Of a stretch of DNA of 64,000 bases, positions 2,532-16,194 are shown piece after piece. Location: positions 1 through 64,000 of the forward strand of contig JAKPPT010000070.1 of assembly GCA_029547205.1 (NCBI GenBank), written 5' to 3'. Each line of letters starts with the position of its first letter. Position 1 is the first letter of the stretch. The notes below the pieces were generated by a model. It searched no databases and was not told the origin of the DNA. It saw only the letters and a program-made list of their open reading frames with translations. Origin of the DNA: Spirochaetota bacterium (GTDB lineage Bacteria; Spirochaetota; Spirochaetia; Treponematales; UBA12059). A program made the position numbers and the translations under genes.

Positions 2532-3158
2532 TTATTTCGACTTCTTTATAGCGGTTCGTACCATAACCGTGCAGTTTCTTGGACCAGGAACTGCACCACG
2601 AATCAGCATATAACCATTTTCGCTGTCGATCCTGACGAGCTTCAAATTCTGAACAGTTACTCGCTCTCTACCCATGCGGCCAGGCATCTTGCGATTTTTG
2701 AATGTTTTATGCGGATAGGTGCGCTGACCAGTTGAACCAGGTTCTCTATGAAACTTTGAACCATGAGTTGAACGTCCACCGCCAAAATTCCAGCGCTTCA
2801 TAACACCCTGGAAACCTTTACCCTTGCTCGTTGCTATAACATCAACAAAGCGAGTTTTTTCAAACAGTGACACATCGAGGCTTGTGCCAACTTCAGCCGT
2901 TCCCGTAAAATCGCGAACTTCTCGCAAAATCACAGCCGGATCCATACCCTCTGGAAACTGACCAGCGTAGGGTTTTGTAATGTGACTCTTTTTCTTGGTC
3001 CCAACACCAAGCACAACCGCGTTATAGCCATCTTTTTCAGCTGTTTTTACTTTAACAACCTTATTCGGCTCAACTGCGATTACAGTTACCGGCACCAGAA
3101 CGCCCTGATCATCAAAAACCTGGGTCATGCCGATTTTTTTGCCAATTAACGCTACCAT
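2532..3158 (-). CDS. rplC: 50S ribosomal protein L3
   Basis: L3 is a 208-residue early-assembly protein of the large subunit. The start MVALIGKKIGMTQVFDDQG and the central loop GVMKRWNFGGGRSTHGSKFHR, with the GRMGRERVTVQNL stretch, are diagnostic. The gene is preceded by a good ribosome binding site (AGGAGAAAGT) and is separated from rpsJ by 40 bases. Confidence 0.97.
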   Translation of the reverse strand: MVALIGKKIGMTQVFDDQGVLVPVTVIAVEPNKVVKVKTAEKDGYNAVVLGVGTKKKSHITKPYAGQFPEGMDPAVILREVRDFTGTAEVGTSLDVSLFEKTRFVDVIATSKGKGFQGVMKRWNFGGGRSTHGSKFHREPGSTGQRTYPHKTFKNRKMPGRMGRERVTVQNLKLVRIDSENGYMLIRGAVPGPRNCTVMVRTAIKKSK

Positions 3159-3198
3159 ACTTTCTCCTGCGTTGAACGATACAGTACGAAACTGTTCG

Positions 3199-3504
3199 TT
3201 ACTGCTTAATCTCTACATCCACACCTGCTGGAAGCTCAAGCTTCATCAGCGCATCCATGACATCAGCTGTGGGACTGATGATATCAATGAGTCGCTTATG
3301 CGTCCTCATTTCAAACTGCTCTCTTGACTTTTTGTGCACGTGCGGCGAACGAAGCACCGTATACTTGTTTATCCGTGTGGGCAATGGAATAGGACCCGCC
3401 ACTTTTGCACCGGCTTTCTGAACAGTCTGAACAATAGCGTGAGCGCTATCATCAACAAGACGCACATCGAAGCCCCTGAGTCTGACTCGGATTCTGTCTT
3501 TCAT
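3199..3504 (-). CDS. rpsJ: 30S ribosomal protein S10
   Basis: S10 is a 101-residue small-subunit protein that also acts in Nus-factor antitermination. The start chosen is the ATG giving [19 protein letters not shown], because GGAGG lies 6 bases upstream. The open frame continues 53 codons further upstream but without S10-like sequence. The conserved [35 protein letters not shown] block is split across the normal positions. It is the first gene of the operon. A tuf gene, often upstream of rpsJ, is absent here. Confidence 0.97.
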
Positions 3505-3659
3505 AAGTCCTCCAAAGATCACTTGCGAAGGCATCACCGTACCGTACCCTGGCGAGCGTGTACAGTAACCCAGCGCCCGGAGTCGTGGAACTCCGCTTTG
3601 CAAAAGCTCACACAGAACTTTCGCAGCTATCAGAAAATACCTGTCCTGATTGTTACGAG

Positions 3660-3688
3660 ACAATACAGCAAATGCAAAAAAGTGTCAA
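3660..3688 (-). promoter_or_regulatory. Sigma-70 type promoter of the S10 operon
   Basis: On the minus strand TTGACA (3688-3683) is followed after 17 bases by TATTGT (3665-3660). This gives a leader of about 145 bases before rpsJ. The near-consensus boxes, ideal spacing and position make this the likely main promoter of the ribosomal protein operon. Confidence 0.8.
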
Positions 3689-3708
3689 GCGGAGGTTAGT
3701 GCGATAAA

Positions 3709-3912
3709 TTGCTTTTGAAAATTACATTGCAGGAAGATAAAGATCAATTATTGTCATATTTTAATAAAACTGACGATTATTATTATTTATCTTATTATTC
3801 TGGAGATTATACGAAAAATCTTTATGAAGTGGTTACTCCGCTATTTAATAAATATGGAATTCAAATAATTGATTATATTCTTTGTTTTACTCACAATTTG
3901 GTAAAAAAATAA
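3709..3912 (+). CDS. Possible small hypothetical protein
   Basis: An AT-rich open frame of 67 codons with a TTG start and no clear ribosome binding site. The product is rich in Tyr (DDYYYLSYYSGDY) and Leu and has no family that I recognise. Its composition is unlike the neighbouring ribosomal genes. It may be a remnant of a longer acquired gene rather than a working gene. Confidence 0.25.
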   Translation: MLLKITLQEDKDQLLSYFNKTDDYYYLSYYSGDYTKNLYEVVTPLFNKYGIQIIDYILCFTHNLVKK

Positions 3913-4324
3913 TTCAGTAAAATATGTATAAATCTTGTTTTATTGAGACACAACCGTTCTGAAGCTGATGACAAGCTCTTGCATGAAGGTAGATACGATT
4001 CGCCTCTAGCTGATGCTGACATTCATAGTCCAAACTCAAGCACACGTTCTTGCGGGCAAGTCATTTCCGATGTATAATCGCTGTGATTACTTAAAAAATT
4101 ACAGAGGTCTACCCTGATTATTGACTGTGTTTACTGCAATTATACGATTATTATGAGTATCAACTGCTTAAACCTGACAATTCCTATTGTCACACTTTTT
4201 GCGGTCGAGCCCAGCTAAGATTGGGAACGCTCGTCACAAACTGCGACAACCCCCTTCGAGCTGGAATTGCAGTTATAGCAAATGTTAGCTAGGTAAAGAA
4301 ATTGCTTTTATGGAGACTAAACAT
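3913..4324. other. Intergenic stretch left of the defence gene pair
   Basis: No convincing gene is visible. The last part holds short dyads and ends with GTTAGCT (4281-4287). This is the reverse complement of AGCTAAC found just after the gene pair at 10943, so it might mark the left border of a mobile cassette. Confidence 0.3.
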
Positions 4325-7300
4325 ATGACCAATACTGATTTAACCTTTATCACAAACGAAGAACAGAAGAACCTCAAATCAAGGTTTCAAGCTCTTATCA
4401 AGGATACCAGACTCTTTGACTGCTTAGTTGGTTACTTCTACACAAGCGGTTTTCACGCCATTTATAAGTCGCTGGAAAATACTGAGAAAATCAGAATTTT
4501 AATTGGCATAAGCACCAGCAGACAGACCTATGAACTGTTGACCAAAGCCAAAAATAGTCAGCAACAAGCGCTGCAATTTTCCCATGCCGAAACAAAGCAA
4601 GCATACGAAGAACTGGTTGAACAGGAGATGGAGGATTCGGAGGATAAACGGGAAGTCGAAGAAGGCGTTGCTAAATTCATCGAATGGATTAAAAACAATA
4701 AGCTGGAAATAAAAGCCTATCCGTCGCAGAATATCCACGCCAAGCTTTACATCATGACTTTTGTGGAGGGTGACCGTGATGTCGGGAGGGTGATTACAGG
4801 TTCAAGCAATTTTACCTACTCAGGCTTAGTGGAAAATCTTGAGTTCAATGTTGAGTTGAAAAATCGCGCTGATTATGAATTCGCCAAAGAAAGATTTGAT
4901 GAGCTTTGGAAAGATGCAGTCGACATAAGCGAAAAATACATTCAGACAATTCAGGAAAAAACCTGGCTAAACCCAAATGTAACACCCTATGAGCTATACC
5001 TAAAATTTCTGTACGAATACTTTAAAGACGAGTTAAGCCAGACCGAAGAATTGCTTTTTAGATACATGCCCCAGGATTTCAAGAAACTTGAATATCAGGA
5101 GCAGGCGGTTTTAAACGCCAAAAAAATCCTCGAGGAATACGGTGGTGTATTCATTTCGGACGTCGTGGGCTTAGGAAAGACTTACATCTCAGCCATGCTT
5201 GCTGGTCAACTTGACGGCAGAACGCTGGTCATCGCTCCGCCGGTTCTGCTTGATAAAACAAATCCCGGCTCATGGCCAAATGTGTTTTCCGATTTTCGTA
5301 TTCCAGCAGACTTTGAATCCGTTGGAAAATTAGACGTGATACTTCGCGGAGGAACAGAAAAATACAAGAACATTATTATAGATGAGGCCCATCGCTTCCG
5401 CACAGAAACCAACATAACCTACGAAAAATTAGCCGAAATCTGTCGAGGCAAGCGAGTGATTCTGGTCACGGCCACGCCGTACAACAATTCACCAAAAGAC
5501 ATCTTGAGTCAGATAAAGCTGTTCCAAAAGGCAAGGAGAAGCACGATCCCCAATTTGCCCAATCTGGAAGGTTTCTTTAATGGATTGGACAGGAAGCTCA
5601 AAAAGCTGGACAGGAAAAGCGATTACTCTGAATACATCAGAATCGTTAAAGAGAATGCCAAAGAAATCCGCGAGAAGGTTCTTAAGTATTTGATGGTGCG
5701 TCGCACCAGAACCGAAATCTCAAAATACTTTGCCGATGATTTGGCTAAGCAAAATCTCAAGTTTCCGGATATCGATGACCCAAAGCCGCTTTTTTACCAG
5801 CTTGACGAAACAGAAAACAAAATATTCAACGAAACTATTGAGCTGATTTCCAATAAATTCACATACGCTCGTTACACGCCACTTCTGCCAAAGTACTATA
5901 AAGGTTCAATCGACCAGCTTGAGGAACAATCTCAGAGGAACATGGGCAAGTTTATGAAAATTCTTTTGGTGAAACGGCTTGAGAGCAGCTTCTTTGCTTT
6001 CAAGAAATCGATTGACCGCTTTATCTCCTCTTATGAGATGTTTATCAAAGAGTTCAAAAAGGGACATGTTTATACCAGCAAGGATTACGCAAACAAGATT
6101 TTTGAATATCTAGAAAATGACGATGATGAAGCCATCCAGAGTTTGATCGATGAGGGTAAAGCCGAAAGATACGACAGCAAGGATTTTACTGAAGACTTTA
6201 TCAAAGATCTGGAAAGCGATCTCAATATATTGAAATATATCTTATCTAAGTGGGAAAATATTAAACGGGATCCCAAACTACTCACTTTTCTGGATGAACT
6301 TTCAACAAACGAAATACTCAAAAACAAGATTATCTTGTTTACCGAATCAAAAGAAACCGCCGAATATCTCGCAACAAATATCAATAAGAAGTTTGGAAAC
6401 ATAACGCTTTGTTTTACCGGCGGATCAGGAGAAGCAACGCGCGATAAAGTGATCGAAAATTTTGATGCAAAAGTGCGCCATCCCAAAGACGATTATCACA
6501 TCCTGGTTTCGACCGAGGTCTTGTCAGAAGGCGTCAACCTGCATCGCTCCAATGTGGTCATAAATTATGACATTCCCTGGAATCCAACCCGCATGATGCA
6601 AAGGGTTGGACGAATCAACCGGGTCGATACAAAGTTTGACAAAATCTATACGTTTAATTTTTTCCCAACCGAACAATCGAACGACCAGATCAAACTCAAA
6701 GAAGCGGCAGAGGCTAAAATCAATGCATTCCTTACATTACTCGGCGGCGATGCAGCGCTGTTAACCGAAGGCGAACCAGTCGGTTCACATGAGCTTTTCA
6801 ATCGGTTAATCTCCAAAAAGACCCTGAGTGGCGAAGACGAAACCGAAGAAAGCGAGCTTAAATATTTGCAGATGATTAAAGATATTCGGGACAAAAAACC
6901 TGAACTATTTGAAAAAATCAAGCGTTTGCCCAAGAAAGCCAGGGCAGCAAAAAACGATATTGAACACCAAAATTCACTGGTGACCTATTTAAGACGCGGT
7001 AAGTTACAGAAATTTTTTATAGCCGATGAAAAAAGCCCGATTGCCAGGGAACTTGATTTTATGAGCGCTGCAACAATCTTCGAAAGTACCAGTGATGATA
7101 AAAACCAAAAAATACCGGAAAAGTTTTTTGACCTTCTGGATAAAAATAAAGAAGCTTTTGTTCTTGCCACTACCGAAGAGATGGTAGAACCCATAAAAAG
7201 ACGTGGTCAGGACAGCGCCGCACAATTGCTCAAAATTCTCAAAGCCACGCTAAAGAATACACAACAGTTCACGGACGAGCAGGAGCAGTATCTTAAACAG

Positions 7301-7525
7301 GTCCTCGTCCAGTTGGAGGAAGGCGGTATACCCAAGCAAACAGCTAAAGAAACTCTCAAGGCGTTAAACGCACTCAAACAGGATTTAATTAACCCGTTAA
7401 AAGTGCTGGCTACACTGCAAAGCCACATCTCAGAGCGATTTTTACAACAGCACTATGCTGAGCAGAATCCGCGTTCGTCCGGCAAACGGGAAGTGATTCT
7501 ATCAATGTATTTAACAGGAGAATAA
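4325..7525 (+). CDS. PLD-nuclease/SNF2-type helicase fusion
   Basis: A predicted DNA-translocating defence protein of 1066 residues. The ATG at 4325 is preferred because GGAGA lies 8 bases before it; an ATG five codons earlier lacks such a site. Residues ~20-200 form a phospholipase-D-like domain with one HKD-type motif (HAKLYIM ~137, then GSSNFT ~158). A superfamily 2 helicase follows: Walker A DVVGLGKT ~280, Walker B IIIDEAHRF ~350, motif III LVTATPYNN, then LSEGVNLH and QRVGRINR as motifs V and VI. The stop is one base before the methyltransferase gene, so the two are co-translated. This suggests the restriction or translocation subunit of a two-gene system. Its closest analogues by architecture are HsdR-like or DISARM-like helicases, but it matches none of the named systems fully. 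Confidence 0.8.
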   Translation: MTNTDLTFITNEEQKNLKSRFQALIKDTRLFDCLVGYFYTSGFHAIYKSLENTEKIRILIGISTSRQTYELLTKAKNSQQQALQFSHAETKQAYEELVEQEMEDSEDKREVEEGVAKFIEWIKNNKLEIKAYPSQNIHAKLYIMTFVEGDRDVGRVITGSSNFTYSGLVENLEFNVELKNRADYEFAKERFDELWKDAVDISEKYIQTIQEKTWLNPNVTPYELYLKFLYEYFKDELSQTEELLFRYMPQDFKKLEYQEQAVLNAKKILEEYGGVFISDVVGLGKTYISAMLAGQLDGRTLVIAPPVLLDKTNPGSWPNVFSDFRIPADFESVGKLDVILRGGTEKYKNIIIDEAHRFRTETNITYEKLAEICRGKRVILVTATPYNNSPKDILSQIKLFQKARRSTIPNLPNLEGFFNGLDRKLKKLDRKSDYSEYIRIVKENAKEIREKVLKYLMVRRTRTEISKYFADDLAKQNLKFPDIDDPKPLFYQLDETENKIFNETIELISNKFTYARYTPLLPKYYKGSIDQLEEQSQRNMGKFMKILLVKRLESSFFAFKKSIDRFISSYEMFIKEFKKGHVYTSKDYANKIFEYLENDDDEAIQSLIDEGKAERYDSKDFTEDFIKDLESDLNILKYILSKWENIKRDPKLLTFLDELSTNEILKNKIILFTESKETAEYLATNINKKFGNITLCFTGGSGEATRDKVIENFDAKVRHPKDDYHILVSTEVLSEGVNLHRSNVVINYDIPWNPTRMMQRVGRINRVDTKFDKIYTFNFFPTEQSNDQIKLKEAAEAKINAFLTLLGGDAALLTEGEPVGSHELFNRLISKKTLSGEDETEESELKYLQMIKDIRDKKPELFEKIKRLPKKARAAKNDIEHQNSLVTYLRRGKLQKFFIADEKSPIARELDFMSAATIFESTSDDKNQKIPEKFFDLLDKNKEAFVLATTEEMVEPIKRRGQDSAAQLLKILKATLKNTQQFTDEQEQYLKQVLVQLEEGGIPKQTAKETLKALNALKQDLINPLKVLATLQSHISERFLQQHYAEQNPRSSGKREVILSMYLTGE

Positions 7526-7526
7526 T

Positions 7527-10500
7527 ATGGACAGACAACAAGCTCAAAAGCTGATTAAAGAAACTTTTGAAAAACCTTTTGCTAAACTCAATTTTGCCAG
7601 TTTTATAAAAAATCTCCTTAACCAGGTTGAAGACGCCCCCTTCACTTACGAGGGTAATTATATCCCCGATGCTTACAAACCTTACATTTCATCGTTGGAG
7701 CGTCTTTACAAATATTCAGATGGCGAGCATGAGATTGACATACTTGTGGTTCAACTGAAAAAACAAACTTCGTTGGAACGTGCCCGCACCATGCAGCGCA
7801 ATTTCATCGCCTGGTACTTAAACGGCAGCCGTGGCGGTAAGATGAAAGATGCCGCGCTGGTTGCCTTTGTTTCTCCCGATGAAGCGGACTGGCGTTTTTC
7901 GCTGGTTAAAATGGACTACCGCTTTGAAGAAACAAAAGACGGAAAAGTAAAAGTTAAAGAAGATTTTACCCCGGCAAGACGCTGGTCATTTCTGGTGGGC
8001 AGTAACGAAGCCAGCCACACTGCCCAGAGCCGTCTGATGAATATCCTTGCCGATGATGAGCATAATCCCACCCTAAAGCAACTGGAAGAAGCTTTTAACA
8101 TAGAAACCGTTACCAAAGAGTTCTTCCTTAAATACCGCGAGCTATTTATCCGTACCAAGGAAGCGTTGGATAAAGTGGTGAAGCATAATGCCAGAGTCAA
8201 AGCCGATTTCGATGCCAAAGGCGTTGATACGGTAAACTTTGCCAAAAAGCTGCTTGGCCAAATCGTCTTTCTTTATTTTCTGCAGAAGAAAGGCTGGTTT
8301 GGCGTTGAGCGGGATGCAGAATGGGGCACGGGCTCCAAACATTTTTTACGAGAACTTTTCGAAGGCAAACATGGCAAATATACCAACTTTTTTAACGATA
8401 TTCTCGAACCCCTCTTTTATAAGGCGCTGCGCATCGATCGCAGTCACGACGACCATTATTACAGCCGCTTCAATTGCAAGATTCCATTTCTGAACGGCGG
8501 ACTGTTCGATCCTATCGGCAATTACGACTGGGTGCACATGGACATCAATATACCGAACGAGCTTTTTTCCAATACAGTAAAAACCAAAGAAGGCGATATT
8601 GGTAACGGCATCCTCGATATCTTCGACCGCTATAATTTTACGGTTAAGGAAGACGAGCCTTTGGAAAAAGAGGTCGCCATCGATCCGGAACTTTTGGGTA
8701 AGGCGTACGAAAAATTCAATGCCATCCGTCCCGATAATTTTGAAGAATACAAGGCTGCTTTAAAAAGCGGGCAAAAGGACGCTGAAAACAAGTTCAACAA
8801 GACATTTGGTGTTTACTACACCCCGCGCGAAATCGTGCATTACATGTGCAAGCAGAGCCTGATCAATTATCTCTTTACCCGGGCGGAGGAAGTCGGGCTT
8901 TCTAATGATATTAAAAAGCAAGACATCGAAGACCTGATTGAAGTCGGCGAGATGATTACCGAACACGAGGCAACCGCTCTTATCAAACAGGAAAAGATAA
9001 AAAACGGCATCCAGAAATCCACGGAATACGTGGGGCTTTTGTCCGACAGTATCCGGGAAAATGCCGCAACCATAGATAACTGGCTGGCTGACATTACCGT
9101 GTGCGATCCGGCAGTGGGTTCGGGCGCCTTTCCGGTGGGCATGATGCACGAGATTGTCAAAGCTCGTAATCTCCTTTCCATATATATTAAAGGCCCCAAC
9201 CGCAACATTTATACCTTCAAACGCGAATGCATCGAAAAATCGCTCTATGGTGTAGATATCGACCCCGGTGCGGTGGAGATCGCCAAATTGCGGCTCTGGC
9301 TGTCGCTGGTGGTGGATGAGGACGACATCCGTCAGATCAAGCCCCTGCCCAATTTGGATTATAAAATTGTGTGCGGGAATTCATTGCTGGGTGTGGAGAA
9401 GAATTTGTTTAACAATGAATTGTTTGTTAAACTGGAGCAGTTGAAACCGCATTACTTCAACGAAACCAATCCCACCAAAAAGCAGGAATACAAAAAGCAG
9501 ATTGATAACTTGATTAGACAAATTACCAGCGAACATACGGAATTTGATTTTGAGGTCTATTTTTCCGAGGTGTTTCATAAGAAGGGCGGGTTTGATGTGG
9601 TGATTGCCAATCCACCGTACATCCAGCTTCAAAAAGCGATTGATGATAAGCAAAAATATGCTGATCTCTACAAAAATGCATGCTACGAGACTTTTGACAG
9701 GTGCGGAGATATCTACTGCCTGTTTTATGAACAGGGCATACGTATCCTTCGACCCAATGGCGTTTTGTGTTTTATCACCAGCAATAAATGGATGCGGGCA
9801 GGCTACGGTAAATCTCTGCGGACATTTTTCCTCAAACATAATCCCAGGCTTTTGATTGATTTAGGCCCTGGCATTTTTGAAAGCGCGACCGTGGATACCA
9901 ATATTCTCATAATGCAAAAAAACGGGACAAAACCCGCCCAGCTGTGCCTCGATGCAGTTACCTTAACAGAAGAGGCAAAAGAAGCGGACATTGCTTTGTA
10001 TATTAAGAAAAACAGAACATGCTTGACGGCTCTGAGCGAGAATGCCTGGTTTATTGGCAGCTCTGCTGAACAACAACTTAAAGAGAAAATAGAACGCATA
10101 GGCAAACCACTGAAAGATTGGGATGTGAATATTTATTACGGTATAAAAACCGGCCTAAACGAAGCCTTTATCATCACCACCGAAAAGCGCAATGAGATTT
10201 TGTCGCGTTGCAAGGACGATGCCGAACGCCAACGCACCGAAGCCATCATCAAACCTATTTTACGAGGCAGAGACATCAAGCGATATTATTACGAATGGGC
10301 GGGGCTGTGGGTGATAGTAATTCCAGCCAGCTGGACAAATGTAAATAAAGGTGAAGTCACCGCAGAAAAATTTATAAACATGAAGTTTCCTACATTAATG
10401 CAGTATTTAAAAATATATGAAGAAAAAGCCAAAAAACGCGATGATCAAGGTGATTATTGGTGGGAATTACGCCATTGTGCCTACTACCCCGAATTTGAGA

Positions 10501-10922
10501 AGGAGAAGGTGGTGTATTCTGAAATTGTCAGGCAACCTCAATTTTATTTTGACACAGAGAATTTTTATGTAGAAGCCACATCATTTTTAATGACGGGCAA
10601 AAATATAAAGTATATTTGTGGGCTATTAAATTCTAATCCTGTTACATACTTCTTTAAACAATGGTATGCTGGTGGTGGATTAGGAGAAAAAGGCTATAGA
10701 TATAAAAAGGCATTTCTTGAAAATATTCCTATACCCTCTATCACTGTAACCAACCAACCTATTGTTCAACAAATAGAGGCTTTGGTAGATAAAATTCTTT
10801 TTGCTAAAAAACAAAACCCGCATGCAGACACCAAAGAATACGAACGCCAGATTGACCAGCTGGTCTACCAACTCTACGGCCTGACCGATGAAGAGATTCG
10901 GATAGTGGAGGGGAAACAATGA
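7527..10922 (+). CDS. Eco57I-type adenine DNA methyltransferase, possibly with nuclease domain
   Basis: A large (1131 residues) N6-adenine methyltransferase of the gamma class. Motif I CDPAVGSGAF is near residue 527, the acidic motif LYGVDIDPGAVEIAKLRLW near 570, and the catalytic motif IV NPPY near 694. The C-terminal ~300 residues resemble the TaqI/Eco57I target recognition domain (YYGIKTGLNEAF, GRDIKRYYYEW). The first 150 residues contain GEHEIDILVVQLKK, which could be a degenerate PD-(D/E)xK nuclease core; this is only an inference. AGGAGA precedes the ATG. It probably gives self-protection and specificity for the helicase/nuclease encoded one base upstream. Both genes differ in base use from the AT-rich sequence around them, which suggests transfer. 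Confidence 0.85.
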   Translation: MDRQQAQKLIKETFEKPFAKLNFASFIKNLLNQVEDAPFTYEGNYIPDAYKPYISSLERLYKYSDGEHEIDILVVQLKKQTSLERARTMQRNFIAWYLNGSRGGKMKDAALVAFVSPDEADWRFSLVKMDYRFEETKDGKVKVKEDFTPARRWSFLVGSNEASHTAQSRLMNILADDEHNPTLKQLEEAFNIETVTKEFFLKYRELFIRTKEALDKVVKHNARVKADFDAKGVDTVNFAKKLLGQIVFLYFLQKKGWFGVERDAEWGTGSKHFLRELFEGKHGKYTNFFNDILEPLFYKALRIDRSHDDHYYSRFNCKIPFLNGGLFDPIGNYDWVHMDINIPNELFSNTVKTKEGDIGNGILDIFDRYNFTVKEDEPLEKEVAIDPELLGKAYEKFNAIRPDNFEEYKAALKSGQKDAENKFNKTFGVYYTPREIVHYMCKQSLINYLFTRAEEVGLSNDIKKQDIEDLIEVGEMITEHEATALIKQEKIKNGIQKSTEYVGLLSDSIRENAATIDNWLADITVCDPAVGSGAFPVGMMHEIVKARNLLSIYIKGPNRNIYTFKRECIEKSLYGVDIDPGAVEIAKLRLWLSLVVDEDDIRQIKPLPNLDYKIVCGNSLLGVEKNLFNNELFVKLEQLKPHYFNETNPTKKQEYKKQIDNLIRQITSEHTEFDFEVYFSEVFHKKGGFDVVIANPPYIQLQKAIDDKQKYADLYKNACYETFDRCGDIYCLFYEQGIRILRPNGVLCFITSNKWMRAGYGKSLRTFFLKHNPRLLIDLGPGIFESATVDTNILIMQKNGTKPAQLCLDAVTLTEEAKEADIALYIKKNRTCLTALSENAWFIGSSAEQQLKEKIERIGKPLKDWDVNIYYGIKTGLNEAFIITTEKRNEILSRCKDDAERQRTEAIIKPILRGRDIKRYYYEWAGLWVIVIPASWTNVNKGEVTAEKFINMKFPTLMQYLKIYEEKAKKRDDQGDYWWELRHCAYYPEFEKEKVVYSEIVRQPQFYFDTENFYVEATSFLMTGKNIKYICGLLNSNPVTYFFKQWYAGGGLGEKGYRYKKAFLENIPIPSITVTNQPIVQQIEALVDKILFAKKQNPHADTKEYERQIDQLVYQLYGLTDEEIRIVEGKQ

Positions 10923-10942
10923 TTGTGGGGTCGGAGCTTGCA

Positions 10943-11010
10943 AGAAGCTAACAAGCGTTTTCACCCGACAGGCTTCGCCTCGATGTTCTCATCTCGCTTT
11001 CGGGTGATGC
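10943..11010 (+). repeat. attC-like imperfect palindrome after the defence pair
   Basis: AGCTAAC is followed by GCG and CACCCGA, a loop, then TCGGGTG and GCGCAAAC. The arms pair with small bulges, as in integron cassette recombination sites (attC). A GTTAGCT box is expected at the right end but is not found there; one occurs at 4281, left of the gene pair. The structure is visible, but assignment as attC is inference. Confidence 0.3.
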
Positions 11011-11083
11011 GCAAACCTTTATATGGACAACTTCATCGCACATAGTGTTTAGAAATAGATTTTTCACGCTTAATGACTGACAG

Positions 11084-11356
11084 ATGAATACTGAGAATGT
11101 AAAAGCAGTTATAAAAGAAGGAGATTGCAAAAGACTAAAGTTCATCTTAAATATTTATAAAAATAATAGTGTTGAATGGTTTCCGGAAATAGTTACTTAT
11201 TGTAAAAATAAGGAAACAAATTTCATCCAGTTTGAATGGATCGAAGGTTGTGTAATTGATTATAAAAATATTAAAAGAGCATTTTATGATTTAGGTAAAT
11301 TTCATAATAAAAATAAAGTAAGTAATAAAAAATATGGATTCATAACTCTGTGTTAA
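11084..11356 (+). pseudogene. Truncated phosphotransferase-like (APH/choline kinase type) fragment
   Basis: An AT-rich 90-codon frame with sequence like the N-terminal lobe of aminoglycoside or choline phosphotransferases: FIQFEWIEGCVIDYKNIKRAFYDLGKFH follows the hinge pattern in which F-W-EG is followed by LG-FH. The catalytic HGD and DxD motifs of the C-terminal lobe are missing, because the frame ends and transposon debris starts. It is therefore called a broken gene. Confidence 0.4.
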
Positions 11357-11451
11357 ATAGTGTTCAGTCTTGTTCGCAATTTTAAGTAAAGTAAATCATT
11401 AGATTTCCATTTTGTCATAATGCCATATTTAATAACGCTTGTTGTTTGGCA

Positions 11452-12235
11452 AGCTATTCTGCCTTTATATACCTCCTACCGGTCTGCCAAGTATTCTTCA
11501 TATTCCATGAGATACGAGCAGATCAATCGCATATATGAATTAACACTTGCGAATATTTTAACTACTCTCGAACGTCTCCTTATTTCTTTGTTCAACCGTT
11601 CAAGGGTATTCGTCGAAGCAATCTTCCGTGCATCGATTTCCTGAAAACCATAAAACTGCAGTGAGTTCTCTAACCCATCTTCAAGAATTGCAATTGCCTC
11701 CGGAAGAGTATCGCCATACTGCTCGATAATTTCATGGCAATATGCAATTGCGGTTTCTCGGTCAGGCTTTAGCTATATCTGCTTAAACCTTTTTGCAAAC
11801 GCTTCTTTGTCTTTGTGCGAAACTTTAGCGAGGATGTTTCGCATGAAATGAACCTTACACCGCTCTATAGGACACACCGAGGAATTCCTTCTGAATTGCG
11901 TTCTGAAGACCCCTATGTGCATCAGAACCGCACAACACCATCAATGTTCAGAATGCCGTCCAGTTCTTGAATAGTGTCACGAAAATTGTGAAAATGCTTA
12001 TTCTGTCTACTGTCCCATTTGGTTTTTGCGGAAAATATCAAATATATTGTGATGATTATAAATATGTCTACTAAACATTGTAGAAAGAATTTTATTCACA
12101 AGTTTCATGACACTAAGCAGTTCTTGAGCCTGGATAACGGTTACATAACAAAGCGCTGCGAGGACATTCGTTTGCCTGGTACATATATTCCTACCCCCTC
12201 CTTAACTATTTCCATTCAGCTCTAGCAACAATGTG
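11452..12235 (-). pseudogene. IS256 (Mutator-type) transposase remnant
   Basis: Minus-strand translation gives clear Mutator-family pieces: CKVHFMRNILAKVSHKDKEAF, then EDGLENSLQFYG, ASTNTLERLNKEIRRRS and VNSYMRLICSYLMEYEEYL. The frame carries in-frame stops, for example TAG in the RFKQ-I-stop-LKPD region and before EVYKGRI, and at least one frameshift near 11870. A 147 bp MITE (11971-12117) splits the gene in its middle. The 5' part right of the MITE is badly decayed. Confidence 0.75.
11971..12117. mobile_element. MITE copy A, inside the IS256 remnant
   Basis: A 147 bp non-coding element with inverted ends: TAGTGTCACGAAAATTGTGA at the left and TCACAAGTTTCATGACACTA at the right. A perfect 10-base direct repeat, CAGTTCTTGA, flanks it at 11961-11970 and 12118-12127, as expected for a target duplication. 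Three related copies lie at 13998, 18237 and 42432. The target size is near the 8-9 bp made by IS256-family transposases, so such an enzyme may mobilise it. Confidence 0.8.
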
Positions 12236-12259
12236 ATGAATTATGCTTGACAATATTTT

Positions 12260-12273
12260 GGTATTATAGTACC
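12260..12273. promoter_or_regulatory. Near-palindromic operator candidate before the DUF438 gene
   Basis: The sequence GGTATTATAGTACC is a 14-base dyad with 12 of 14 symmetric positions. It lies 45 bases upstream of the DUF438-hemerythrin gene and overlaps a TTGACA-containing AT-rich region (TTGACA at 12247). It could be a regulator site; no regulator is identified. Confidence 0.3.
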
Positions 12274-12317
12274 TTTATATTGTTTTAGTAAACCAAAGCT
12301 GAACCAGGGAGGTCAGT

Positions 12318-13580
12318 ATGAGTGAATATCTAACAGACGGAGAAGAAAAAACAAAACGACTCAAGGCAGTCATTGATGCTCTGGCTGCAGGAACTTCTCC
12401 TGATAAAGTAAAGAAGGAATTTCACGAACTCATCAAAGGAGCAAGCGCTACAGAAGTTGCAGCGATGGAGCAATCGCTTATTGCTGGTGGCATGCCGGTT
12501 GAAGAAGTCATGAAACTTTGCGAAATCCACGCAGATGTTTTCAGGGAAGGTCTTGAAAAGGCTAAACCGGGTAAGACGCTTCCCGGGCATCCTGTTCACA
12601 CATTCCTCGCAGAAAACAAAGAAGCAAGGAAACACGTACGAGCTTTGCTCACTCGAGCATGGTTTGGCGACAGTGAAAAACTTAAGGAAGCGGTAGATGC
12701 GCTCCGACCTATCATCATCCACTACGAACGCAAGGAAAACCAGCTTTTCCCATTTTTGGAGCAGCGCGGTTTTACCGGTCCATCGAAAGTGATGTGGGGA
12801 AAACATGATGAAATTCGCGAGAAATTCCGGGAGATTGACACAGCATTCTCTTTGGGTTCATTGAAAACAGCCAGATCGCTCGCAAAAGATCTCGCTCGCC
12901 GGATACGTATGATGATTTTTATGGAAGAAAAAATTCTCTTCCCCAATGCACTTAAAAAACTCACGAACCGCGATTGGGTGCAAATCCGGAATGGCGAATC
13001 CGCTATCGGTTATGCATGGGTGAAACCTGGGGCTGAATGGGATGCCGGGCTTGTGAGCAATATGCCGGATCAGCAAGACCAAAATCGAGTGCCTGCGGAA
13101 ACACATTCAACATCCGCCAGCAAAACCAATGAGGAGAACCTGGCCATGGACAATAGAACTCCGCTCGCTCCAGAAACACCCATTCCTCTCTCGGTGGGAA
13201 GTCTGCCGCTATCGTACCTTGATGGCATCCTGAAGATGCTACCCTTCGATATTTCTTTCGTAGATGCTAACGATAAAGTCATGTACTACTCAGACTCTCC
13301 ACACCGGGTATTCCCTCGAAGTCCCGCCATTATTGGAAGAGCTGTCCAAAACTGCCATCCGCCTAAAAGCGTTGCAACAGTAGAAAAAATACTTGAAGCA
13401 TTCCGGAAAAAAGAAAAAGACAAAGCTGAGTTCTGGATTGAGATGAACGGCAAATTCATCTACATTGCATACAAGCCGCTCTATGATGCTTCCGGTACCT
13501 ATCTTGGGACACTGGAAATGAGCATGGATGCAACAGAACTGCGAGCCCTTAGAGGTCAGCGTAGACTCCTCGATTGGTAG
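12318..13580 (+). CDS. DUF438-hemerythrin-PAS domain protein
   Basis: A 420-residue predicted cytosolic sensor. Residues ~10-85 match the DUF438 pattern (FHELIKGASATEVAAMEQSL, VMKLCEIHADVF). Residues ~90-225 form a hemerythrin-like HHE bundle with spaced His/Glu ligands (GHPVHTF, IIHYERKENQLFPFLE, MWGKHDEIR, FMEEKILFP), which probably holds a di-iron centre that binds O2 or NO. Residues ~300-415 are a PAS domain (LPFDISFVDANDKVMYYSD, GRAVQNCHPP). AGGGAGG precedes the start. A cupin gene follows after about 75 bases and is probably in the same operon. Proteins of this architecture occur in anaerobes and are linked to oxidative or nitrosative stress. The direct partner is unknown. Confidence 0.88.
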   Translation: MSEYLTDGEEKTKRLKAVIDALAAGTSPDKVKKEFHELIKGASATEVAAMEQSLIAGGMPVEEVMKLCEIHADVFREGLEKAKPGKTLPGHPVHTFLAENKEARKHVRALLTRAWFGDSEKLKEAVDALRPIIIHYERKENQLFPFLEQRGFTGPSKVMWGKHDEIREKFREIDTAFSLGSLKTARSLAKDLARRIRMMIFMEEKILFPNALKKLTNRDWVQIRNGESAIGYAWVKPGAEWDAGLVSNMPDQQDQNRVPAETHSTSASKTNEENLAMDNRTPLAPETPIPLSVGSLPLSYLDGILKMLPFDISFVDANDKVMYYSDSPHRVFPRSPAIIGRAVQNCHPPKSVATVEKILEAFRKKEKDKAEFWIEMNGKFIYIAYKPLYDASGTYLGTLEMSMDATELRALRGQRRLLDW

Positions 13581-13656
13581 CTGGCTATTGTGCGGGTATG
13601 CTTTCCATACCGGTAATACAGGCAAATCGAAAGAATCACAATTGGAGGACAATGCA

Positions 13657-13971
13657 ATGGAGAAACAAGTATATTCGTATACAAAGACCGATCATAAAAT
13701 CATCGAAAAAATAGTGGCGGACGAACATGTTCAGATAAACCATGTCGTTCTAAGCCAGGGTGAATCTCTACCGGTGCACAATGCAAACGCCTTCGTGTAC
13801 CAGATAATATCGCGGGGCATAATGAAGATTGCAATCGAAGACCGTGAGCCTGAGCTTCATGAGGCAGGGACCATACTCGCGATATCCAGAGGAACCAAAA
13901 TGGCAATCGAAAATGGCGGAACCGAAAGCTTAGAGTTTTTTATTCTGAAGGCTCCCCCTCCTGATGCGTGA
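13657..13971 (+). CDS. Small cupin-domain protein
   Basis: A 104-residue single-domain cupin. The start at 13657 is chosen because GGAGGA lies 7 bases upstream; the frame extends further upstream without relevant sequence. The beta-barrel pattern is visible (VVLSQGESLPVHNANAFVYQIISRG, then HEAGTILAISRGTKMAIEN). Only one of the usual metal-binding His residues (LPVHNANA) is clear. It lies directly behind the DUF438-hemerythrin gene, so it probably works in the same redox or stress response. Confidence 0.75.
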   Translation: MEKQVYSYTKTDHKIIEKIVADEHVQINHVVLSQGESLPVHNANAFVYQIISRGIMKIAIEDREPELHEAGTILAISRGTKMAIENGGTESLEFFILKAPPPDA

Positions 13972-13997
13972 GAGAATCAGCATCCATATAGATCTAA

Positions 13998-14145
13998 TAG
14001 TGTCACAAAAATTGTAAAAAAGCCATTTGGGTTACTACTTGTTTGATGGTATAGGGCAAGTATCAAATATAATGTATGTATGTATGTATAGATATGCATA
14101 CTATGTAGTGTTGAAAAACTTTTATGTACAAGGTTCATGACACCA
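13998..14145. mobile_element. MITE copy B
   Basis: Related to the copy at 11971, with left end TAGTGTCACAAAAATTGT and right end GTTCATGACACCA, and 148 bp long. The centre has diverged and contains a short tandem run of TATG (about 14070-14090). No target duplication can be seen, so this is probably an old copy. It fills most of the gap between the cupin gene and the binding-protein gene. Confidence 0.65.
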
Positions 14146-14206
14146 ATCACTCAATAACTTTGAATGTTGATCCCCAAGGTCATGCGTTATATGCAAACAC
14201 CAGGCA

Positions 14207-14944
14207 TTAATACTTGATCCCATACTTTTTTAGTATGCCAGCATAAACCCCATTACGTTTGATTATAGCAAGACCCTTATTAAACTGATCGAGCAGCGCC
14301 CTGGAATCGGGATACTGCTTGGAAACAATAAGGTGCAACGTACTCACGTTTGCAGGTTTTGTAACCATTTTTAATTTTCCAATTTCATTGCCTAAAATTC
14401 TCTCTGCAATCATCTTGCAGACTAATTCATCTTCAATAAAATATTGAATGCGACCAGATTTTAGCATGAGAATAGCCTGTTCCGTCGTCGCTATCGAATC
14501 ATATTTAATACCCAGCTTCTTCAATTCATCACGGTACCAGTATCCCTGGAGCCCTCCCCAGCGAACATTACCAAAATCTTTTAGTGACAGCCAATCTATA
14601 TCGCTTCCTCTACCTTCCCAATAAAAAATTCCACCGCGAGACGTTATGAGTACATCGGGAAAATAGTATTTAACCGATCGCTCTTCCGTAATTCTATAAG
14701 GAAACGCAGCAAAAGCCATGCCATTTTGAACATTTTGCTCACAACGTTCCCAGGGGAAAAACCTTAAATCGAACGCTATGTTGCCTGCCGAACATGCTGC
14801 CATGATAATCTCAGTTACAACAGCTTTCCCACCAGGTTTTGCCGTAGTATACGGTTCCCATTCACTCGTATTAAAAATCACGCTCTGAGCATGTAACAAC
14901 GCTATTGAGAAAATTAGCATTATTATTACTGTTCTATGTTTCAT
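14207..14944 (-). CDS. Periplasmic amino-acid-type solute-binding protein
   Basis: A 245-residue secreted protein of the extracellular solute-binding family 3 (ABC amino-acid receptors). The ATG at 14944 gives a good signal peptide (MKHRTVIIMLIFSIALLHAQS); a TTG fifteen codons earlier is less likely. The start of the mature protein (FNTSEWEPYTTAKPGGKAVVTEIIMAA) and the later lobe (GGLQGYWYRDELKKLGIKYD) fit the two-lobed fold. No ABC permease or ATPase gene is next to it, so it may be an orphan receptor or a sensor. Confidence 0.72.
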   Translation of the reverse strand: MKHRTVIIMLIFSIALLHAQSVIFNTSEWEPYTTAKPGGKAVVTEIIMAACSAGNIAFDLRFFPWERCEQNVQNGMAFAAFPYRITEERSVKYYFPDVLITSRGGIFYWEGRGSDIDWLSLKDFGNVRWGGLQGYWYRDELKKLGIKYDSIATTEQAILMLKSGRIQYFIEDELVCKMIAERILGNEIGKLKMVTKPANVSTLHLIVSKQYPDSRALLDQFNKGLAIIKRNGVYAGILKKYGIKY

Positions 14945-15168
14945 TGAATTTCTTATTGTAAATATAATACGGGGAAGTAGTCTTTTCAATTACAAACTGT
15001 ATCATTACAGAGATACAACAATAAGATTGCTGTATTAGTAACATTTTATGATAATGATATTGAATAGTATAATAAAGTAATGACATTTTGAAAATGAGTA
15101 TAACGATATTATATTAGCAGCGTACAGATAGCAATATAAATTAATTTTAACTGACAATAAGAAAGTAC

Positions 15169-15198
15169 TTGACAAAGTTAACCATTATATGTTATAAT
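15169..15198 (+). promoter_or_regulatory. Promoter of the AAA/unknown gene pair
   Basis: TTGACA (15169-15174), an 18-base spacer and TATAAT (15193-15198). This is close to the vegetative consensus. Transcription should start near 15205, nearly 290 bases before the first long gene, so the transcript has an unusually long leader. Confidence 0.75.
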
Positions 15199-15204
15199 AT
15201 TTAT

Positions 15205-15489
15205 ACAATACAAAAGGCCCGATTTATTTCCTTACTTGCGGGGCCTGTTAGTTATGACAAACCTGCTGCATAGCGCATGCAGGACTATAGCTAAAGGGGG
15301 TTAACATGCTATTCTTTTTAACAATCCAATCAACACAATTCGTATTTTTCAGCAGTTTGTAATAATACCATCAATCACGCAGTCATTGTTTACATAGGCA
15401 AAATTTGTATTCGTGGAACTGTCTCACAGCAGCAAGTGTTACTATTTATTCTCTTCTAACGCATAATAAAACCAATAAGGAAGAAACCT
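15205..15489 (+). other. Structured leader region upstream of the AAA gene
   Basis: This leader holds two stem candidates: GGCCC...GGGCC around 15215-15245 and CCTGC...GCAGG around 15262-15283. They are followed by a strong ribosome binding site (AAAGGGGG) in front of an 18-codon frame. No terminator run follows the first stem. It could be a regulatory leader or a small RNA. I do not recognise a known riboswitch. Confidence 0.35.
15306..15362 (+). CDS. Possible 18-residue leader peptide
   Basis: ATG sits 5 bases after AAAGGGGG and opens a short hydrophobic peptide (MLFFLTIQSTQFVFFSSL). The strong initiation site within a promoter-driven leader is the only support. It could be a leader peptide, a small membrane toxin, or chance. 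Confidence 0.25.
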   Translation: MLFFLTIQSTQFVFFSSL

Positions 15490-16194
15490 ATGGCATATGC
15501 ATCAGATGCCTTATCAATAAATACCGATTTTAACTCAAACGAAACAGATTCTCCAGATTATGGATTCTATAGTAACGATACTTGTAACGAAACACTTTTT
15601 TATTCTCTAAACGCTGCAGAATTACAATACTCAAGTGAACTGCGCGTAAACACATTTTTGTTAGAATCATACGCTTACAAAAATTTTACTAAAAAAATTA
15701 TTTTCAAACGCAATACTACCAATGCAAAAAATATTGCTAAAATGTTCCATGCAAACAATCCAAACGATACTATACTACACATCGACGAAATAGACAGTTT
15801 TTTATTTAAGCGAAAAAATGTGCATCAATCATGGGAAATTTCTAAAGTAAACGAATTTTTTTCTCAGATGGACCAATATCAGAGTATATTCATTGCTACC
15901 ACTAATAATTACAGTCTCTTTGACGAAGCTGTTATTCGAAGGTTCCAACAAAAAATAGAATTTTTAGCATTAACTACAGAGGGTGTGTTATCGCTCTTAA
16001 AAATTTATTTTCCTGCTATCAAATTTTCACAATCAAATCTATTATCACTATTAAACAATGGTCCTGTCTATCCGTCAGATTTTCAAACGGTAGCAAAGAA
16101 TATTTCTGTTATGGGTGGCATCAAATGTAATAAAACCACAATAATCACCATGCTGCTCAAAGAATCAAAACTAAGGAATTATAACATGGAGTAA
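15490..16194 (+). CDS. AAA+ ATPase-like protein lacking a P-loop
   Basis: A 234-residue product. The second half of an AAA+ module is clear: Walker B TILHIDEIDSFLF near residue 96, sensor 1 FIATTNN near 135, and the AVIRRF arginine-finger region near 150, with a C-terminal lid-like part. No GxxxxGK[ST] Walker A motif occurs in the preceding ~95 residues, which are rich in Asn, Thr and Tyr. It is either a 5'-truncated ATPase or a non-hydrolysing relative. AAGGAAG stands 7 bases before the ATG. The next gene follows after 40 bases with its own good site, so the two form an operon. Confidence 0.6.
   Translation: MAYASDALSINTDFNSNETDSPDYGFYSNDTCNETLFYSLNAAELQYSSELRVNTFLLESYAYKNFTKKIIFKRNTTNAKNIAKMFHANNPNDTILHIDEIDSFLFKRKNVHQSWEISKVNEFFSQMDQYQSIFIATTNNYSLFDEAVIRRFQQKIEFLALTTEGVLSLLKIYFPAIKFSQSNLLSLLNNGPVYPSDFQTVAKNISVMGGIKCNKTTIITMLLKESKLRNYNME

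What the first reader, a model, noticed from the sequence alone, without database searches (positions are those of the whole stretch)
4325..10922. Two-gene PLD-helicase plus Eco57I-like methyltransferase system
A PLD-type nuclease fused to an SNF2 helicase is translationally linked to a 1131-residue methyltransferase with a possible extra nuclease domain. The set fits restriction of foreign DNA but lacks the DUF1998, PglZ or other parts of DISARM and BREX. It looks like a minimal stand-alone system.
Basis: partly seen in the sequence, partly recalled or inferred. Interest (0 to 1): 0.58.

Follow-up and report, generated by a model that had tools for sequence, protein, structure and literature searches.

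The report
Two-gene restriction system, motor carries nuclease
This is a widespread pair of bacterial genes that most likely works as a DNA-cutting immune system, in which one protein tags the cell's own DNA and chooses the target while a separate motor protein carries the cutting site.

Summary
HEL (4325-7525: PLD-type nuclease plus SNF2 motor) and MT (7527-10922: Eco57I-type N6-adenine methyltransferase with target domain) lie 1 nt apart. HEL relatives at 64-93% identity have MT downstream in 75 of 80 loci, over 20 named phyla. The proposed nuclease in MT is not supported: its N-terminal domain lacks PD-(D/E)xK residues in most of 70 relatives, so the HKD site of HEL is the only candidate. 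That N-terminal domain has no Pfam or PDB match and marks MTases beside HEL (23 of 26 MT loci with it, 4 of 44 without), which suggests an adaptor. Best reading: a two-subunit ATP-dependent restriction-modification system, like a split Type ISP enzyme. A similar lactococcal pair was described in 2018 as putative Type II R-M, and a Prevotella MTase beside a SNF2 gene methylates GGYGAB. Some relatives carry a spare inverted target-domain cassette, several beside an invertase; none was found in the window. No function was tested.

The parts
4312..4315 (+). GGAG ribosome-binding-like site before HEL ATG 4325
   Evidence: sequence
4325..7525 (+). HEL: HKD(PLD)-SNF2 translocase-nuclease, 1066 aa (alternative ATG at 4310, 1071 aa)
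4736..4843 (+). HKD active site of HEL: H138-x-K140 ... GSSN162 ... E173 (numbering from ATG 4325), invariant in 43 of 43 rows of A2
5159..5182 (+). Walker A DVVGLGKT (279-286)
   Evidence: invariant in A2
5381..5392 (+). DEAH box (353-356); D, E, H invariant
6599..6622 (+). helicase motif VI QRVGRINR (759-766)
7516..7520 (+). AGGAG ribosome-binding-like site of MT inside the end of HEL
   Evidence: sequence
7527..10922 (+). MT: N6-adenine methyltransferase with built-in specificity domain, 1131 aa
7527..8105 (+). MT N-terminal domain (about residues 1-193): no Pfam or PDB sequence relative; nuclease-like order of elements but no nuclease residues; marks MTases beside HEL
9105..9131 (+). SAM-binding motif DPAVGSGAF (527-535)
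   Evidence: A1
9609..9620 (+). catalytic motif NPPY (695-698)
   Evidence: A1
10251..10733 (+). TaqI_C target-recognition domain (residues 909-1069)

Best explanation
A two-subunit, ATP-dependent restriction-modification system. MT methylates N6-adenine at a probably asymmetric site read by its C-terminal target domain and so marks self DNA. When the site is unmodified, MT recruits or activates HEL, with its apparently dead, nuclease-like N-terminal domain as docking or sensing adaptor. HEL moves along duplex DNA on its SNF2 motor; because one HKD half-site needs a second one, cleavage follows when two HEL molecules meet, as in Type I/ISP/III enzymes. Shown by sequence: gene pair, motifs, conservation, lack of nuclease residues in MT, exchange of the specificity half. 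Inferred: complex formation, translocation, meeting of two motors, cleavage, phage defence.
For: MT start downstream of HEL in 75 of 80 loci: 41 within 20 nt (42 printed, one is L017, an artefact), 6 at 21-200 nt, 28 at 201-2500 nt counting L017. All 20 divergent regions that I chose from the hit lists carry both genes on one contig, one of them 9-10 kb apart. HKD residues H, K, N, E and the helicase motifs are invariant in 43 rows; H, K, GSSN, E also in 39 rows, 6 of them at 29-35% identity. The HKD profile finds SauUSI, an ATP-dependent restriction enzyme (3e-13), then BfiI (0.005). MT motifs DPAxGSGAF and NPP invariant in 40 rows. MT from residue 194 on folds like BrxX (Z 25.1, rmsd 4.1, 699 aligned), LlaGI (Z 23.5, rmsd 7.5, 564), LlaBIII (Z 22.9, rmsd 7.0, 590). 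HEL distances track MT N-terminal distances (r 0.57, 0 of 2000 permutations as high) but hardly the C-terminal half (r 0.09, 154 of 2000). N-domain and HEL go together: 23 of 26 against 4 of 44 MT loci near HEL. PMC5608340: Pin17FIII alone in E. coli gives m6A at GGYGAB, with a SNF2/RAD54 gene upstream (passages).
Against: No activity, complex or phage protection was tested. The HKD region is partly low confidence in the HEL model (residues 160-177 pLDDT under 50). A4 was built from paired loci, which favours paired hits. Four MT loci near HEL lack a detected N-domain (in G212 it can be aligned by eye, G052 is broken, G305 is a contig edge), and A4 misses the Lactococcus MTs, so the domain is not a strict requirement or diverges fast. 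In 28 of 75 loci extra sequence of gene size lies between the two, so the full system may hold more parts.
Confidence: 0.7

Rival explanations
1. MT is an ordinary Type IIG enzyme that cuts by itself, and HEL is an accessory motor or a second, independent defence protein.
For: PADLOC calls MT REase_MTase_IIG with 1444 bits; the AF2 model puts helix-strand-strand-strand-helix-strand in residues 20-115, where Type IIG/ISP enzymes keep their nuclease.
Against: At the expected Q/E-x-K place only 9 of 70 relatives have Q, the rest mainly Y (23), K (17), T (10), H (7); the K is K in 35 and Q in 27 of 70; 19 distant MTs also lack it. HEL keeps its HKD and helicase motifs.
Confidence: 0.12
2. A BREX/DISARM-like system that blocks phage replication without cutting; the HKD domain is regulatory or cuts only replication intermediates.
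For: HEL matches DrmD (119 bits PADLOC, 133 bits NCBIfam) and MT folds like BrxX.
Against: PglZ and DUF499 not found in the host genome, the single MZB hit is on another contig; no third gene family in more than 17 of 80 loci.
Confidence: 0.1
3. HEL is a modification-dependent (Type IV, SauUSI-like) nuclease that merely travels with an orphan methyltransferase.
For: Closest solved sequence to the HKD domain is SauUSI, also a Foldseek match of the HEL model.
Against: Tight pairing with one MTase family, distance correlation of HEL with the MT N-terminus, N-domain/HEL association.
Confidence: 0.08

Closest known systems
orf33-orf34(-orf35) of L. lactis FM03P pLd8, putative Type II R-M (PMC6098607, section 10 read)
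   Same: PLD-SNF2 protein next to a 'Type IIG' MTase without restriction domain; the authors already propose that the PLD domain cuts and liken the pair to class I DISARM
   Different: described as one plasmid operon, no family census or name; the FM03P sequence was not fetched here. Lactococcus pairs that I did fetch (L161, L163) match HEL at about 30% and MT at 35-36%, and carry an inverted target-domain cassette plus invertase
Pin17FIII of Prevotella intermedia 17F (PMC5608340, passages read)
   Same: about 1117-aa MTase with an upstream SNF2/RAD54 gene; m6A at an asymmetric site
   Different: sequence not fetched here; called Type IIG by REBASE; convergent partial gene downstream; no restriction assay in the passages I saw
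Type ISP (LlaGI, LlaBIII)
   Same: motor, N6 MTase and target domain in one system; MT half has a similar fold (Z 23.5 and 22.9)
   Different: two proteins here, and HKD in place of the Mrr-type nuclease (the latter recalled)
SauUSI (7clg)
   Same: HKD nuclease fused to an ATP-dependent SF2 motor
   Different: single protein with SRA domain that cuts near modified sites (PMC12707154, passage); no MTase
CglI / NgoAVII (recalled)
   Same: PLD nuclease working with a helicase in ATP-dependent restriction
   Different: nuclease and helicase are separate proteins, B3 target domain, C5 MTase (recalled)
Type-2 BREX-related systems (PMC12839542, sections 28 and 30 read)
   Same: HKD-Swi2/Snf2 helicase plus N6-MTase
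   Different: have DUF499 ATPase and DUF3780; DUF499 not found in the host genome
PADLOC C3a139 'HKD+Snf2' (PDLC01075)
   Same: best PADLOC match of HEL, 150.8 bits over residues 20-806
   Different: model of the motor alone; what the name stands for was not found

Membership tests
Type IIG restriction enzyme | active nuclease in the MTase polypeptide | tested here: not met
   catalytic residues absent in most of 70 relatives and in 19 distant MTs; place of the motif inferred from predicted elements
Type IIG restriction enzyme | N6 MTase followed by TaqI_C-like target domain | tested here: met
Type ISP | nuclease, motor, MTase and target domain in one polypeptide | tested here: not met
   two genes in the window and in the relatives
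Type ISP | MTase-target half with the LlaGI/LlaBIII fold | tested here: met
   Z 23.5 (rmsd 7.5, 564 aligned) and 22.9 (rmsd 7.0, 590 aligned)
Type ISP | ATP-driven translocation and cleavage between head-to-head sites | not testable with these tools
   needs biochemistry
DISARM class 1 | DrmA-like helicase with DUF1998/MZB beside the set | tested here: not met
   one MZB hit in the genome, on contig C48; the window is on C45
DISARM class 1 | DrmB present | not tested
   -
BREX | PglZ in the genome | tested here: not met
   0 hits in 1 genome; control rings in 2 of 14 genomes
Type-2 BREX-related (BR) | DUF499 ATPase | tested here: not met
   0 hits in 1 genome; control rings in 1 of 14 genomes
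Type-2 BREX-related (BR) | DUF3780 | tested here: inconclusive
   0 hits but no control rang
ATP-dependent R-M in general | motor, nuclease, MTase and target domain encoded together | tested here: met
ATP-dependent R-M in general | restriction of unmodified DNA | not testable with these tools

The most novel reading that the evidence does not exclude
A distinct, unnamed class of ATP-dependent restriction-modification in which the nuclease moved from the methyltransferase to an HKD-SNF2 motor, while the old nuclease place became a dead adaptor domain that docks the motor. In some branches specificity is switched by inverting target-domain cassettes. That would also explain the three motifs of P. 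intermedia 17F, which read as three of the four combinations of {GG, CC} with {NYAG, YGAB}.
Probability: 0.4. Interest if true: 0.62.

Novelty: new variant of a known kind. Interest (0 to 1): 0.46.

Why it matters
A family filed as Type IIG seems to keep its cutting site in the neighbouring gene. This would change how such loci are annotated, what must be cloned to see restriction, and why MTases of this kind methylate but may not cut. The N-terminal domain gives a sequence marker for the class, and the inversion cassettes in relatives offer a direct test of switchable specificity in an ATP-dependent system.

Tried and rejected
Considered and set aside: DISARM, BREX and BR membership (DUF3780 inconclusive). 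RNA element in the region: no Rfam match. Promoter-like sites 20 against 19.1 expected, uninformative; terminator-like sites 14 against 8.7 (sd 3.0), scattered. Inverted target cassette in the window: none found by self-comparison of about 3000-16000; none on the minus strand of the 80 loci. N-domain relatives: no PDB sequence match of worth (best E 0.34) and no Pfam family for the window's domain; one other member of 41 reached E 0.003 (NrtR_WHD), taken as chance.

Literature: ten searches found the two prior descriptions but no named system for the pair, and no title that I recognised as inversion of Type IIG-like target cassettes. They cover open-licence PMC papers only, and most listed papers were not opened. 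Makarova 2011 on defence islands (recalled as possibly relevant) is not held.

Corrections: the value -5032 belongs to L017 (second helicase hit), so 41 of 75 loci have a gap of 20 nt or less and 28 a gap of 201-2500 nt. Loci without a detected MT start: L021, L029, L038 and L080 end on the contig within 1.2 kb of HEL; L012 keeps only a C-terminal MT fragment. Rows dropped before counts: 8 of 80 HEL rows from the tree and HEL set because the match was incomplete, had a stop or an X; 5 of 75 MT N-termini shorter than 200 residues from the residue counts.

Full report
What is there. It is probably a member of Spirochaetota: G020, which the tool counts to the same phylum, has its HEL at the same contig coordinates (50341-53526) and identity as L017, a record titled Spirochaetia bacterium. 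Divergent from a ribosomal-protein gene cluster on the other strand (identified by eye from the translations), two genes run on the + strand: HEL 4325-7525 and MT 7527-10922, separated by one base, with the ribosome-binding-like AGGAG of MT inside HEL. HEL holds a PLD/HKD domain and an SNF2-type motor; MT holds an Eco57I-type N6-adenine methyltransferase and a TaqI_C target domain. HEL occurs once in the host genome.

The pair is conserved. One scan of 84,980 species genomes confirmed 198 relatives of HEL and kept the best 80. In 75 of these 80 loci the start of an MT relative follows on the same strand within 2.5 kb. Of the other five, four run into the contig end and one (L012) keeps only a C-terminal fragment. 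The 72 HEL rows that went into a FastTree tree carry 20 phylum names (56 rows labelled, 16 unknown); the labels need 28 changes where 19 is the minimum, and the window's nearest row is a Paludibacter MAG at 93%. This fits horizontal transfer, with the caution that most records are metagenome bins.

The pairing is also old. In 392 genomes of the host's phylum HEL matches at E <= 1e-30 in 64 and MT in 64. Twenty divergent regions that I picked from these lists were fetched. All 20 hold both genes, HEL at about 27-33% identity in the main pieces; in L157 they lie 9-10 kb apart and in L155 they are divergent.

Where the nuclease is. HEL keeps H138-x-K140, GSSN162 and E173 in all 43 rows, and the same residues in a 39-row set that includes distant members. 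A profile of this domain finds SauUSI (E 3e-13) and BfiI (E 0.005) among solved chains; the aligned BfiI stretch shows HAK...N...E (that these are the BfiI catalytic residues is recalled). In MT the place for a second nuclease would be the N-terminal 190 residues. The model there has the order helix-strand-strand-strand-helix-strand, and the listed Type IIG/IIL/ISP enzymes align to MT only from about residue 150-200 on, so the place is right for a nuclease. But the residues are not: position 76 is Q in 9 of 70 relatives (Y 23, K 17, T 10, H 7), position 78 is K in 35 and Q in 27, and 19 distant MTs show no D...(E/Q)xK either. Conserved instead are R123, S125, R152 and T165 in all 41 rows of A4, and R87, N92, W122 in at least 90%. 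I read it as a dead nuclease-like domain, without proof of the fold.

What the N-domain may do. It has no Pfam family and no PDB relative. In the 392 genomes a profile of it hits 42 places in 40 genomes, and 38 of 42 have an HKD/HEL gene within 12 kb. The four others are a second copy in G034, a broken copy in G062, and two on contigs of G171 and G059, whose genomes carry an HKD gene on another contig. Among 70 MT loci merged, those with the domain lie near HEL in 23 of 26 cases, those without in 4 of 44 (Fisher p 2e-11, not corrected for relatedness, and the profile was built from paired loci). The HEL distance matrix follows that of MT residues 1-450 (r 0.57) but hardly that of residues 640-1131 (r 0.09) over 41 loci plus the window. 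In L002 HEL and MT residues 1-450 are 93% identical to the window, residues 640-1131 31%. So the specificity half is exchanged while the half that would face HEL is kept.

How it most likely works. MT reads and methylates an asymmetric site. For an MTase of this layout this was measured: Pin17FIII of P. intermedia 17F, expressed alone in E. coli, gives m6A at GGYGAB, and a SNF2/RAD54 gene lies upstream (PMC5608340, passages; its sequence was not compared here). On unmodified DNA, HEL would be loaded through the N-domain and translocate. An HKD active site is built from two motifs (recalled), so cleavage would need two HEL copies; an asymmetric site methylated on one strand leaves one daughter duplex unmarked after replication, the problem that Type III and ISP enzymes solve by demanding two facing sites (recalled). 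This gives a clear test. Everything in this paragraph beyond the reported methylation is inference.

Variation in relatives. Between HEL and MT, 28 of 75 loci hold a gap of gene size (corrected). Clusters with an AlbA_2 representative occur in 17 of 80 loci, with a Bro-N representative in 9; these counts include a few members outside the gap. RhuM, DUF3800 and HepT-like genes were seen in single gaps. Such genes also sit inside Type I operons (recalled). In Lactococcus plasmids (L161 pJM1F, L163 pUCCL629A) and in L141-L145 MT is accompanied by an oppositely oriented partial copy. In four checked in detail (L161, L163, L142, L145) the first 50-100 residues of the copy are 72-100% identical to MT and the rest mostly 10-50%. 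The shared part gives inverted repeats of 231-314 bp in these seven loci, and a serine recombinase or invertase is annotated or found nearby in L161, L163 and L141. P. nigrescens L162 has two more divergent partial genes and an invertase. This looks like a switch of specificity. The three motifs reported for P. intermedia 17F (GGNYAG, CCNYAG, GGYGAB), of which the cloned gene explains one, read as combinations of {GG, CC} with {NYAG, YGAB}, as such a switch would give; this is my inference from the printed motifs. No such cassette was found beside the window's pair.

Known or new. The architecture was noticed in 2018 on a lactococcal plasmid, with the same guess that the PLD domain cuts and the same comparison with DISARM (PMC6098607, section 10). 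PADLOC holds a motor model (C3a139) and files MT as Type IIG. HKD-SF2 fusions with other partners are described in Pbe/CxC systems (PMC10853773, passages) and Type-2 BR systems (PMC12839542, sections 28 and 30). My searches showed no name or census for this pair. I therefore call it a new variant of a known kind, of moderate interest; the added value is the N-domain without nuclease residues, its tie to HEL, and the cassette arrangement in relatives.

Noticed in passing
L161:8592-10059, L163:8460-9936, L142:15080-15958, L145:2409-3281, L141:13557-15203: Oppositely oriented spare target-domain cassettes next to MT relatives, with inverted repeats, and in L161, L163 and L141 a serine invertase/resolvase gene: likely switchable specificity.
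   Followed up: partly
window 11450-12230 (-): Decayed Mutator-type transposase remnant downstream of the pair (Transposase_mut 4e-19 on one fragment, 1e-5 on another).
   Followed up: yes
window 3199-4325: The pair sits directly beside a ribosomal-protein gene cluster on the other strand, and the 610 bases before HEL have low G+C (34% against 40% in the window).
   Followed up: no
L063:1-260 and 11253-11504: 94% identical inverted repeat of 260 bases at both ends of a contig that carries the whole system with an AAA_13 gene; possible element ends or assembly artefact.
   Followed up: no
L003:13194-16593: MT is split into ORFs of 944 and 238 aa inside its target domain although the first 921 residues are 90% identical to the window.
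   Followed up: no
G000:C48:54560-54796: A single MZB/DUF1998-type gene (798-aa frame) elsewhere in the host genome, not near this pair.
   Followed up: no
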